Assembly: GCF_035083965.1 (NCBI RefSeq)
Contig: NC_089723.1
Location: 2,666,001-2,730,000, forward strand
Source: Branchiostoma lanceolatum
Lineage: Eukaryota > Chordata > Leptocardii > Amphioxiformes > Branchiostomatidae
Length of the DNA: 64,000 bases
Direction of reading: 5' to 3'
The translations under genes were made by a program, and so were the position numbers. Positions 1,731 to 44,200 of this stretch are shown piece after piece; the stretch's first letter is position 1, and each line of letters begins with the position of its first letter. Under the pieces are notes generated by a model, which had not been told where the DNA came from, searched no databases, and was given only the letters and a program-made list of their open reading frames with translations.

Positions 1731-4700
1731 TTTTCCGAGAGAAGCCGCCCATCCCTCCCAGCCCGGCCCAGGCCGCCATCTTTGAGAGCGAGGCGGAGTA
1801 CTCCTACATCGGCTCCATCAAGATACTGGTGAAGAGCGTTCCTTTCGTCCTTCTCATCATCACGTATGGTAAGAAGCAAACAAACAAATAAATAAACAAA
1901 CGGCTTATCAGCCTCCTTCCTTTTACTCCTACATCGGCTCCATCAAGAGACTTGTGAAGAGCGTTCCTTTCGTCCTGCTCATCATCACTTATGGTAAGGA
2001 ACAAACAAACAAACAAACAAACAAACAAACAATCACCCTCCTTCCTTATACTCCTACATCGGCTCCATCAAGAGACTTGTGAAGAGCGTTCCTTTCGTCC
2101 TTCTCATCATCACGTATGGTAAGGATGCTGATCCAATTAGAGCATCTTCTCGTTATCTGTTCCTCTTGTCACTGTCATCTGCATCCCATTCATCTTCCGT
2201 GTATGATACACATTTTCCCGTTCTCTTCATCACGTACGGTAAGGATTCTTATCTGGTTAGAGACTATTCTAGATCCATTCACATTATTTTCTTGTCACAA
2301 TAACCCTCGTCCTCTGATGTATTTTATTCTTCTTTTCAACACGCACGGTAAAACTGCTTCTGCTAGTGCCTCTTCATATCATGCATTTCCTAACTTCATC
2401 ATCATCTTATAATTATTTTTCTTTGTCCTTCTCCTCCTTCTTGTCTTCCTTTTGAATAAATGAATGAATCTTTATCACCATTAATATCATTGTAGTCTCC
2501 TATACTTATTACCTAAGTATAGACGTTATTAGCAAATGCTTTGGTATCCAGCTATGCCATGAAATAATGATATGAATCGTAGGATAATGCTTTATAAATA
2601 CGTTGCTCATCTCTGTCCTGTCACCAAAATGAGCTATTATATCGTTTTCTGCGGTGTTTACTTGTAGGTATCAACACTGGGTCTTTCTACGCCATCTCCA
2701 CGCTGCTGAATCAGGTGGTGCTCTCCAAGTATCCGGTAGGTGGCGCTAAATCTTTGGCAGCTTGAAAGACTGCTCGGACCATTTCAATTTGCCTTTGAGT
2801 AGCAAACTAACAGAGATAGAAGATCAGATGGTGCAGTTACTAGTCGAAATAACTTAAGATCTAAAGCCTTTTCTGCATACACATTTGTAAACGTCGTAAT
2901 TTAAGCAAGATACAAACGCGCACAAGCAAACAAACATCATGGATGACACAGGTTTGTAACATTCTATTGCTCCAATGAACTTCATATCAAAGACACCTTG
3001 ACTAGTGAAATAGTACCAACCTACTTCATCTACCTGCAGGGTGAGGAGGTGAATGTTGGCCGGATCGGCCTGACCATCGTACTGACCGGACTGCTGGGGT
3101 CCGTGCTTTGCGGCATCTGGCTCGACAGGACACGGACATTCAAGTAGCGTCACAATTAACCTACTGTATTGCTTTAAGTTCTGACCGGGCCCAACTCCAG
3201 ATGTTCCTGTCCACTGTTAGATGGCTTTTGTAATGATGAAATACCACGTCGTGTCAGATGTAGTAACTCTAAACATAGGCCTACTGTGCTACGAGTAGCT
3301 TAAGCGACATATTTGCTATCTATATTTAGCTAGATTTAGAACCTTTGCTAAAGCTGGAAAAGGCAAGAAAGCTCGCGACAATACTACATTGCAAATTTGA
3401 GGACTACAGTTTCTTCATATTGTATGCATTTTCTCATAATGCTTATGCTTCGTGTTATTCAACTATTTCTTTCCCATTGCTCCCTCTATTTTTCCGACTC
3501 CTTCACAGGGGTACGACCGTGGTTGTGTACATCCTGTCTTTCTTGTGCATGACGGCATTTACGTTTACATTGGACCTCGGCTACCTAGCGGTCGTCTTCG
3601 TAACTGCAGGCGCACTGGGGTAAGTTGGACTCCTGTTGGTTCCGGGATGTCTCTTACGGCAACGATGCATGTCCTAACATTTTAACTAGACATTGGACAA
3701 AGCAGAAAGTTGGTCTGGTCCATAGCTACAGAACTTGTAACTTTGCAAGCCTCTAAGAAACCTTTGAGAAACTCTACATGTACGTCTTAAACAATGTAAT
3801 TCACCGCAAAAAAGGATTTTTTGCCTTTTTGATGGCGTTGCCCTATTAGTCTGTGACATTTAAAATGAAGATATGAAGATAAAAGAAAGTACTAGTCTTG
3901 CGACTGAGGAACTCTTCGATATTGTTAGACTTCTGTAGGAAATTGTAGTTGACAATCTCAAGTCAACCGTACACACTCACGCCAAATCTTCAGAAAGGGC
4001 GCTGGAGCTGCGTAGTCCACTTTTAAAAACTTTTTCTAAGCCCACAATCAGGAATGTTTCGTCTGCGCGGCTTTCTCAGTGGAAGGGCTCGAATGAGCAC
4101 AAGTGCACTCTGCTCTGGAATTTATAACCTACTAATTGTTCGAGTTCTGTTTATCCCAGGTTCTTCATGACGGGATACCTGCCGCTCGGGTTTGAGTTCG
4201 CGGCGGAGATCACCTACCCCGAGTCGGAGGGGACGTCATCGGGACTGCTCAATGCCTCCGCACAGGTGGGTGCACTTTAAATAGACACCGCCAGGTGGTG
4301 CTCTTGTGCTGTAAACTGCCAGTGAAATGAAAATTAACGTAAATATGTGAACTTTTCTTTAAGAAAAATGTGACTTTTAAATCAAGAGTTTACTCTTTGG
4401 CGGGACAAATCACCGACGGGTCCTGCCCCCATAATACGATTTATGTTTTCTTTGTAAGACATGGGTCATATTTGTATGTTATATTCCCATAAATGTAGGT
4501 TATTTCATTTTACTGGCACTTAGAATATATTTTACAAATAAACGGTAGAAAAGAAACGATACTTCTTCAATGTCTTATTTTCCCGCCCTGCAGACGTTTG
4601 GTATCGCCCTGACGCTGTTCATGGGTTACCTGGTGAACAACCTGAGCACTTTGGCGGGAAACCTGTGTCTGTGCGTCACTCTGTTCATCGGCGCCATCGT

Positions 4701-41200: not shown

Positions 41201-44200
41201 CCTTCAGCACGTACGGGAACTGTTACACGTTTAATGCGGACCCGGTCAACCCCATCAACCAGACCATCGCGGGCTCCGGCAACGGCCTCTCCGTCATGAT
41301 AGACATCAAGTCGGTGAGTTTTTATGATGAACATTAAAGAATTTCACATTTCATGAATCATGTTTTCGCGTTTAGACATCTGCAGCTATACATTTTGACC
41401 AATTACCGTTGATCTACGTATGTACACGGCTTTGGTGACTCCGAAATGACCGGAGAGTATACACATGCATGGTCGTGAAAACTGCTTCTCCGCTCTACGT
41501 CACTCTAGGGTCATCTTGTAACAACATGTTACTCTTAAGTATCTTTGATCGATATTAAAGTGCAGAATTCGTAGCCCAAATTCCATCCTATTGTAGCTCC
41601 AGACGCTCAAGGATAAACTGGACCTAGCTAGGATTGTTTCACCGGGAAAAAGTACGAACTCATCCCCTCACGCTGTCACATCGACGTCTTTATTCCAAGA
41701 CAACGATTGACACCAAGACGTTGTCCTCCCCACAGCACCTGTACACAGAGAACCCGCTGCTGCCCGGTGGGACCGCTGACGTGGGGCTGAAGCTGCTCGT
41801 GCACGATCAGAACGAGCCGCCCAAGATGGACACCCAGGGGATCGCCGTGGCGCCGGGAAGTCACGCCTACATCGCCATCAGGCAGATACAGGTGGGAGCA
41901 CAGTTTGTGCTAGGACCAAATAAAGGGGAAGAGGTGGGGTGCAGGTCAGTTATCACCCAGTCCATGTTAATTCATTATTGCAGCTGATGTGTCGTCATTG
42001 TAAAACACGCCAAATCTAGAGGATTATGACAATCTGAACCTGACACCAAGTTTCAAATACAAATAGTTGGCTCAACGGATTTTCGTCCATATTTCAAACC
42101 AAGCGACTGACCAGATTTCCTAGCCTGATATCTGTAGCTCTACACCGAAAATAAAGTTTGTCTACATGTACGTTATTTTGCAACCGGTCATAAGATGCGG
42201 TAAGATCTTACTAGAGGCATCAGCCAAATATCTAAATGTCCTGAATCTCCAACGTTACAGAATCAAAACGGAGTACTCCGATTGGCAATAATTCAAAAAG
42301 GTAGGAGCGTCTTGTGCAGTTGGATTGAATCAGGCGGCAAACTTTAACTACCAGATATTTGAATACGCCAATGGGACTGTGTATTAATGGGGTATGCTTC
42401 TCCACAGTACGAGAACCACGTGCCTCCGTGGGGGGTCTGCCAGGACCTGCAGCTGGAGTATTACGACACCTACACGCTGACGGGCTGTCAGCTGGAGTGC
42501 AGAAGCAAACACGTCGTTCGGAACTGCACCTGCAGACCGATCTACCTGCCAGGTAACTTTAAGACATATCAAACCATTGTGTAACCAGAAAGAGACGCAT
42601 GTGTGTGAGCGTGTGTGTGTACATGCGTGTGTTTCAGTGTATGTATATGTGCTCTCGCGTGAGCGTGTGTGTATTATGTGTGTGTGTGTGTGTGTGAGTG
42701 AATGCCTGTGTGTGTTTGTGTGTGCGCGCGCGCGCGAGAGAGAGAATGTGTCTGCGTGTGCACGTACATCTGCGTGTGTGCGTGTGCGCGTGAGTGAGTG
42801 TCTGAGTGCAGTTTCATTTGATCTATTGTTAACCTTTTCCTCAGGTGATGCGCCGTACTGTGAGCCAGAAGATGTCGCTCACTGTGTGCGGATCGTAGAG
42901 AGTAAGTATCATATCAGCTGGTAATCAAGTGCAGATAGATTATACAGCAAAATGATACGGATAACATGGTAATATTTGGGGACATCTTAAAATGGGATCA
43001 GGAAAAAGGTTAGAATTCAAACAGTAAAAACGAAATTGTGTGACCGTCACCAAGATGAATGCTTCCAAGTTGGTCACCTCCAAGATGGCCGCCTCCAAGA
43101 TGGCCGCCTCCATGGACAGCGGGTAAAGCAGAATAGAATTCGCTTACGCAAAACTAATAATTGTGCATGGAACTTTCAGAGCTAATCATGGATTCTTGTA
43201 CCTCTCTTACAACTTTAAATAATTTGCATAGCTGTTTATATGGTCTGCTATCACCACAGCCGAGGTGACGTCAGGGGCGCTCCCTTGCGACTGCCCCGTG
43301 CCCTGCAGCCTGGTGACCTACCGGACTTCGAGCTCCTACGCAAAATGGCCAAACAACAAAGCCGACCTGATCTACACCGCTGCGTTTGGCCTGAGCCCTG
43401 GCTACATGGCGTAAGGGACATTGCAATTGTTTTCATGTGTGTGCAGAAGCGCCGCCTAAGATATTTTGTTGTTATTGCAGCTGAAGTGTCGTCAGGGGCG
43501 CACCCCTGCGACTGTCCAGTGCCCTGCAGTATGACGAAGTATCGGCCCACAGTCACCCACGCAAAGTGGCCTAACAAAGTGGTCGAGAACGTTTTTCCTC
43601 AAATCTTTCAATTGGGCGAAGACTACTTGGCGTAAGCAAATGAAAATGATTATTCCCGCCGAAAAGCACCAAAACTTCACCACCGTAGTTCTCATCCATC
43701 ATTCACGGCGCATGCGTGGCTCACCAAGTCATCATGTTTCACCCCATGTAGCTCATATTTCATCACTTCACATTTTTTTCATCGCGATTTTATGCCATGC
43801 TGTCTCATCACCTACCACTGGAAGGTTGTATTTACTTCAAAGAGAAATAAAGTGAAGTGTGCTGTATATGTATACTTCAGCCTCGTAGGTTGTAGTAGAC
43901 TTCACATCATTATCACTGAGAAAAAAGCGGTAGTCTACTAGTACAACAGTTAAAAAAAAACAAGTGTTAAGTTAACCTTAATCTGTGATCGTCATGTAAA
44001 GACAAGCACTATAAGCCAGCACAAAGTACGCATAGCCAATTCTCATGAAGCGCCCAAAGGTTCTCATGTGTCTGCTATTTCCTACTGTAGGGACAACTCT
44101 GTAGTGTTTGACGTATACTATGACGAACTGAACTTCGAAACAATCTCTCAGCTCAAAGCCATGGACGATGGAGAGCTGGCCAGTAAGTGCATCATTCTTT

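What the first reader, a model, noticed from the sequence alone, without database searches (positions are those of the whole stretch)
1798..43631. Recurrent exon-edge tandem duplications carrying splice or 3'-end signals in four different genes
Independent loci show the same architecture: part of an exon plus its adjoining signal is tandemly copied into the flanking noncoding DNA at 75-220 bp spacing. The cases are the FLVCR exon 3' half plus donor, the GOLPH3 exon-2 5' end plus acceptor, the GOLPH3 exon-2 3' end plus donor, the CFAP161 terminal exon with stop and AATAAA, the ASIC exon-6 acceptor, and an entire ASIC exon. Finding so many in 64 kb suggests a lineage-specific process (replication slippage or repair at exon borders) that continually produces decoy splice sites and occasionally new exons. 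I know of no description of such a pattern at this density; that is a statement of my knowledge, not a search.
Basis: partly seen in the sequence, partly recalled or inferred. Interest (0 to 1): 0.8.

Follow-up and report, generated by a model that had tools for sequence, protein, structure and literature searches.

The report
Amphioxus mirage repeats at exon edges
Short stretches of amphioxus genes, including pieces of exons with their splice signals, have been copied side by side into the neighbouring non-coding DNA; this is a kind of repeat already described in amphioxus as "mirages", and here it is not clearly commoner at exon edges than elsewhere.

Summary
The repeats are real. The window matches Branchiostoma lanceolatum: its GOLPH3 and partial FLVCR products are 100% identical to proteins of that species. 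FLVCR (donor side), GOLPH3 exon 2 (both sides) and CFAP161 (3' end) carry tandem copies, close copies at 120-139 bp spacing. The ASIC acceptor copy is weak. The ASIC exon pair is a different thing: two 151-nt exons, 64% identical, of which exactly one must be used to keep the frame; both forms occur in other Branchiostoma proteins.

Tandem copying of exon-intron boundaries in amphioxus is published as "mirage" minisatellites (Adh3, globins, troponin C, PGBD5). In this window exon edges are not clearly favoured: 5 of 13 arrays cover an edge against 4.8 expected by footprint (P 0.57) or 2.8 by unit length (P 0.12); 12 of 86 edges have a nearby copy against 162 of 1045 non-coding tiles. General tandem duplication plus selection explains the pattern.

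Two details may be new: a predicted B. floridae GOLPH3 isoform carries a second copy of the same exon-edge peptide, and FLVCR decoys keep a codon that the working exon here has changed.

The parts
1731..1868 (+). FLVCR coding exon with the working donor; its 3' part is the source of the repeat
   Evidence: consensus splice sites and translation; the 240-aa spliced product matches PDB FLVCR1 chains, E 9.5e-94, and a B. lanceolatum FLVCR record at 100%
1799..2125 (+). FLVCR donor-side mirage array, period 125, 2.6 copies; exon ends at 1868 (working), 1993 and 2118 (decoys)
2221..2352 (+). older, diverged FLVCR donor copies (2221-2270 at 80%; about 2329-2351)
14141..14619 (-). CFAP161 3'-end array: end of terminal coding exon (TAA 14595-14593 inside AATAAA 14597-14592) with downstream copies at 14499-14448 and 14278-14227
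   Evidence: CFAP161 by Pfam PF24569 in upstream exons, two of three frames; terminal exon by coding score and acceptor
20128..20319 (+). GOLPH3 coding exon 1
   Evidence: translation
25413..25861 (+). GOLPH3 exon-2 acceptor-side mirage: three decoy acceptors with exon starts at 25446, 25585, 25724, period 139
25862..26108 (+). GOLPH3 working exon 2 (247 nt)
   Evidence: spliced product 100% identical to B. lanceolatum GOLPH3
26031..26354 (+). GOLPH3 exon-2 donor-side mirage: period 130, one close copy (26161-26273) and one decayed copy (26295-26354), decoy exon ends at 26238 and 26345
27977..28401 (+). GOLPH3 coding exon 3
41107..41151 (+). weak, decayed copy of an ASIC acceptor and exon start (working exon 41188-41313)
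43260..43410 (+). ASIC alternative exon A, 151 nt
43481..43631 (+). ASIC alternative exon B, 151 nt; 70-nt intron between A and B

Best explanation
These are amphioxus 'mirage' minisatellites. Segments of about 120-220 bp are tandemly duplicated in this genome at places that are random or nearly random with respect to exon borders. When the duplicated unit happens to straddle a border, the extra copies carry part of an exon with its donor, acceptor or 3'-end signal (shown for four borders). Such duplications survive because the extra copies lie on the non-coding side: the working copy makes the shortest exon with its partner splice site, so exon definition should keep choosing it even though several decoy sites look about as strong (site strength shown; choice inferred). 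Duplications wholly inside coding sequence would be removed by selection, which leaves the impression that exon edges are targeted (inferred). Arrays then turn over by slippage or unequal exchange, with inner units staying more alike than outer ones and old units decaying outward (pattern shown, mechanism inferred). The ASIC exon pair is separate: an old whole-exon duplication kept as mutually exclusive exons (frame logic and cross-species presence shown; expression not).
For: Arrays with period, identity and decayed outer copies. In the GOLPH3 acceptor array units 2 and 3 are identical over 69 bp, while outer units 1 and 4 are 87% and 88% to them; the same pattern is published for globin gene BflGb6. 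Published mirages have splice-signal copies, units of 10-160 bp and length instability, and are said not to disturb splicing. No clear excess at exon edges: 5 of 13 arrays, expected 4.8 (P 0.57) or 2.8 (P 0.12); 12 of 86 edges against 162 of 1045 non-coding tiles. With a position matrix from 18 other donors and 21 other acceptors of this window, FLVCR decoy donors score 5.3, 5.3, 6.6 and 1.0 against 4.8 for the working one; GOLPH3 decoy donors 6.2 and 4.6 against 4.6; GOLPH3 decoy acceptors 10.7, 10.9, 10.9 against 14.0. Of seven decoy uses spliced in silico, six give early stops: FLVCR donors 1993, 2118, 2238; GOLPH3 acceptors 25446, 25585; GOLPH3 donor 26238. The B. lanceolatum proteins P0121 (GOLPH3) and P0241, P0242 (FLVCR) contain none of the decoys of this window.
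Against: The unit-length null leaves room for a modest excess (5 versus 2.8 expected; 3 versus 1.2 among the six youngest arrays, P 0.09). Both edges of one exon (GOLPH3 exon 2) carry separate arrays, which random placement does not specially predict. The GOLPH3 acceptor decoy at 25724 would give an in-frame 46-residue insertion, a predicted B. floridae GOLPH3 isoform carries a duplicated exon-edge peptide, and a second B. lanceolatum FLVCR record (P0242) has a 26-residue insertion beginning with a repeat of GNQV at a place upstream of this window, so not every decoy need be silent. The working GOLPH3 acceptor is the strongest of its four, so there site strength alone could decide. No transcript data were seen.
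Confidence: 0.84

Rival explanations
1. Border-targeted duplication: replication, transcription or repair at exon-intron junctions (for instance at R-loops or splice-linked pauses) preferentially starts tandem duplication, so that amphioxus steadily makes decoy splice sites.
For: Five of 13 arrays cover a border although the unit-length expectation is 2.8 (P 0.12); six of 14 (P 0.045) if the weak ASIC acceptor is added, but that one was found only by looking at an exon edge. Published mirages come from several unrelated genes.
Against: No excess by footprint (P 0.57) or by tile comparison (14.0% versus 15.5%). Published cases were noticed by authors annotating genes, which favours borders (inference).
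Confidence: 0.1
2. Assembly artefact: alleles or mis-joined reads stacked as false tandem copies.
For: One published globin mirage appeared wrongly assembled in the draft genome, and the number of PGBD5 repeats differed between two versions of the sequence. No reads were available here.
Against: Units differ by about 2-30% in graded fashion with decayed outer copies, which allele stacking does not give; the PGBD5 repeats were confirmed by re-examined and new reads.
Confidence: 0.04
3. The copies are functional alternative exons or regulated decoys (for example splice-site competition that tunes expression), kept by selection.
For: Decoy sites mostly keep consensus. A B. floridae GOLPH3 isoform X1 has a second VKDTDPPENIQ after a 10-residue spacer at the same exon edge. 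The FLVCR record P0242 has an insertion with a repeated GNQV. The ASIC pair is conserved and obligately exclusive.
Against: Six of seven decoy uses tested would cause early stops; P0121 and P0241 lack any insertion; the signals in close copies follow from recent copying alone. The isoforms are database records, most of them predictions.
Confidence: 0.08

Closest known systems
Amphioxus 'mirage' minisatellites (Adh3; globins BflGb6 and BflGb9; TnC; PGBD5), PMC3087553 and PMC3902484, passages read; the Adh3 and TnC papers themselves not read
   Same: tandem copies of an exon-intron boundary with splice signals, at either end of an exon; units of 10-160 bp; inner units homogenised in BflGb6; splicing said to be undisturbed
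   Different: unit lengths of the border arrays here are 125-139 bp, within the published range; new genes; one case at a 3' end with stop and AATAAA instead of a splice site; both ends of one exon affected
Intron gain by tandem duplication of AG/GT proto-splice sites (Rogers; Gao and Lynch 2009, as cited in PMC3087553; originals not read)
   Same: a duplicated boundary could become a new intron or exon
   Different: no new intron is shown here; the working exon structure is unchanged
Tandem exon duplication giving mutually exclusive exons (general knowledge)
   Same: ASIC exons A and B, equal length, not a multiple of three, short intron between them
   Different: this is a member of that kind, not of the mirages; I recall no report for an ASIC gene, and the five papers listed by one search show none in their titles; none was opened

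Membership tests
amphioxus mirage minisatellite | tandem repeat whose unit spans an exon-intron boundary | tested here: met
   FLVCR 1799-2125, GOLPH3 25413-25917 and 26031-26354
amphioxus mirage minisatellite | decoy copies keep AG/GT signals | tested here: met
   one old FLVCR copy (2347) scores poorly
amphioxus mirage minisatellite | splicing of the working mRNA is not disturbed | tested here: inconclusive
   P0121 and P0241 lack copies; P0242 and B. floridae P0124 have insertions with repeated edge peptides; no transcripts seen
amphioxus mirage minisatellite | copy number varies between individuals or cells | not testable with these tools
   no second DNA haplotype held
amphioxus mirage minisatellite | CFAP161 3'-end array spans an exon-intron boundary | tested here: not met
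   it spans the stop and AATAAA of the terminal exon; alike in build, but not a splice-border repeat
mutually exclusive exon pair (ASIC A/B) | equal-length homologous neighbours, frame kept by exactly one | tested here: met
   151 nt each; A or B alone gives 511 aa; both or neither gives an early stop
mutually exclusive exon pair (ASIC A/B) | both forms occur in relatives | tested here: met
   P0002 and P0004 carry the A form, P0003 the B form; the A form of the window agrees with each of them at 45/50, the B forms at 38/50, A versus B within the window at 25/50
mutually exclusive exon pair (ASIC A/B) | both expressed | not tested
   no RNA data

The most novel reading that the evidence does not exclude
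Mirages can persist or recur at the same exon edge across Branchiostoma species and sometimes enter the protein: the GOLPH3 exon-2 donor edge is tandemly copied in this B. lanceolatum window, and a predicted B. floridae GOLPH3 isoform carries a second copy of the same edge peptide. Decoy copies also act as a store of older exon sequence: FLVCR decoys encode Arg, as do seven of the eight Branchiostoma FLVCR proteins compared, among them a second B. lanceolatum record, while the working exon here has Ile. Gene conversion between decoy and exon would then be a route of coding change.
Probability: 0.2. Interest if true: 0.5.

Novelty: new member of a known kind. Interest (0 to 1): 0.3.

Why it matters
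It adds FLVCR, GOLPH3 (both sides of one exon) and a CFAP161 3'-end case to a short published list of amphioxus mirages, and gives a small, control-based look at whether exon borders are favoured; the answer here is 'not clearly'. It warns that gene models in such regions can be wrong (the B. lanceolatum ASIC record reads exon A in a wrong frame and through the intron). If genome-wide counts confirm random placement, mirages become a plain measure of tandem-duplication rate and of how well splicing ignores decoys.

Tried and rejected
A whole genome for the window is not held, so the decisive genome-wide count could not be made. The Adh3 mirage paper (PMC117041) and Gao and Lynch (PMC2791625) are not held; what I say of them comes from PMC3087553. 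Rfam found nothing in the window at gathering scores. A gapped alignment of the ASIC acceptor region looks longer than the ungapped match but uses loose gap costs, so I rest on the ungapped score. The 34-kb array (33958-34717) has GTGAGT in its aligned units and might be a non-coding exon edge; I did not search for a gene there and counted it as non-border. I considered treating the ASIC exon pair as an old mirage and rejected it: whole exon, 64% identity, both forms found in relatives.

Limits of the tests: 23 exons of three plus-strand genes were read by hand and checked by translation; the 20 minus-strand exons are approximate, from a coding score, and a few may be false. The 13 arrays are my hand merge of all 29 self-BLAST rows with spacing under 1500 bp and length 25 or more; other arrays with units under 60 bp were not counted. 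Unit lengths and collapsed segments are set by hand. GOLPH3 exon 1 end was entered as 20334 and 20322 and corrected to 20319; CFAP161's coding end was entered as 14599 rather than 14593.
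Full report
Setting. The window is amphioxus DNA. The spliced GOLPH3 product is 100% identical over 287 residues to a B. lanceolatum protein (P0121), and the 240-residue FLVCR part is 100% identical to another (P0241); these two and the best ASIC match (P0001, B. lanceolatum) each list a longest contig of 40,414,955 bases. Sequence matches to solved structures support the gene names ASIC, GOLPH3 and FLVCR. 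CFAP161 on the minus strand rests on Pfam PF24569 in two of three frames; the profile ends in the exon before the terminal one, which I assign by coding score, acceptor and position.

Observation. Tandem copies are present at four of the six named places: FLVCR donor side, GOLPH3 exon 2 acceptor side, GOLPH3 exon 2 donor side, CFAP161 3' end. The fifth, the ASIC acceptor, rests on an 18-of-19 match whose score equals the maximum of 3000 null comparisons; it is probably a decayed copy. The sixth is a pair of full exons, 64% identical.

Is it more than chance at exon edges? I took all 29 self-BLAST rows with spacing under 1500 bp and merged them by hand into 13 arrays. Five cover an exon edge (FLVCR, CFAP161, GOLPH3 twice, ASIC exon pair). 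Random placement of the array footprints over 86 edges gives 4.8 (P 0.57). Because extra copies lengthen a footprint, I repeated the test with one unit per array on a collapsed window: 5 against 2.8, P 0.12; without the ASIC exon pair 4 against 2.6, P 0.24; without that and CFAP161 3 against 2.4, P 0.45; six youngest arrays 3 against 1.2, P 0.09; with the weak ASIC acceptor added 6 against 2.9, P 0.045, but that item was found only by looking at an edge. Some non-coding tiles lie in the mirages themselves. The window shows no clear preference and cannot exclude one of about twofold.

What the arrays look like. In the GOLPH3 acceptor array two inner units are identical over 69 bp and the outer two are 87-88% to them. 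The FLVCR array has three close units and two decayed ones further into the intron. This is ordinary minisatellite turnover and matches what was reported for globin gene BflGb6.

Why decoys are tolerated. By a matrix built from this window's other splice sites, most decoys are about as strong as the working sites; all these FLVCR and GOLPH3 donors are at the weak end, and the GOLPH3 working acceptor is the strongest of its four. By geometry every splice decoy lies further from the partner site of the exon than the working site does, so exon definition should favour the working one. That is inference. Of seven decoy uses spliced in silico six lead to early stops; the acceptor decoy at 25724 would keep the frame with 46 extra residues.

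Relatives. The B. belcheri (P0122), B. floridae (P0123, C3Z328) and B. lanceolatum (P0121) GOLPH3 proteins lack any copy, but a predicted B. floridae isoform X1 of 308 residues (P0124) repeats VKDTDPPENIQ after the spacer SKARGGGRVD, inside the stretch at the exon-2 3' end that is repeated in this window. I could not see its DNA, and the spacer peptide does not occur in this window (searched part of it). In FLVCR the decoy units of this window encode Arg (SIKRLVKSVPF), as do seven of the eight Branchiostoma proteins compared, among them one of two B. lanceolatum records; the working exon here and the identical record P0241 have Ile. That second B. lanceolatum record (P0242) also has a 26-residue insertion that starts with GNQV just before GNQV resumes; this looks like another edge copy, in an exon that is not in the window, and four residues are weak evidence.

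ASIC exon pair. Exons A and B are 151 nt each. A alone or B alone gives a full 511-residue channel; both or neither gives an early stop. P0002 (B. floridae x japonicum) and P0004 (B. belcheri) have the A form, and P0003 (B. floridae x belcheri) the B form; the window's A form agrees with each of the two A forms at 45 of 50 residues, the two B forms agree at 38 of 50, A and B in the window at 25 of 50. The duplication is thus most likely older than the split of these species. The public B. lanceolatum record P0001 instead reads exon A out of frame, through the intron, into exon B.

Known or new. Nine paper searches were made. Those with amphioxus and minisatellite, mirage or exon-boundary terms led to PMC3087553 and PMC3902484, of which I read passages. 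They name the phenomenon, list Adh3, globins, TnC and PGBD5, report tolerance by splicing and propose intron gain. None of the listings showed a genome-wide count by title or abstract start; I opened no other paper. The finding is therefore a set of new members of a known kind.

Noticed in passing
43041-43112: Short minisatellite (unit TCCAAGATGGCCGCC) in the ASIC intron before exon A; a B. belcheri protein record (P0028) ends in many MADTK repeats after the preceding exon, so a like array seems to sit in the same intron there and to be far longer.
   Followed up: partly
43260-43631: The public B. lanceolatum ASIC protein P0001 reads exon A out of frame and retains the 70-nt intron, probably a gene-model error caused by the exon pair.
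   Followed up: partly
upstream of 1 (not in window); protein records P0242, P0245, P0248: FLVCR records show insertions at what look like other exon junctions: P0242 repeats GNQV, P0245 repeats a DRYG-like string, P0248 has a 26-residue insertion at the same junction as P0245; possible further mirages or gene-model errors.
   Followed up: partly
8023-8634 and 6312-7769: Two tandem duplications away from the mapped exons: 304 bp at 308-bp spacing (97.7% identical) and 595 bp at 875-bp spacing (90%).
   Followed up: no
33958-34717: Array of about 220-bp units between GOLPH3 and ASIC with GTGAGT donor-like sites in the aligned units; could be a non-coding exon edge.
   Followed up: no
1799-2125: FLVCR working exon encodes Ile (SIKILV) where decoy units and seven of eight Branchiostoma proteins compared encode Arg (SIKRLV, SVKRLV or SIKRLM).
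   Followed up: partly
55558-58363 and 61717-63222: Minus-strand coding segments that resemble a protein kinase and a dynamin-like GTPase (by eye from translations; not searched); no edge there passes the 99% null score.
   Followed up: no
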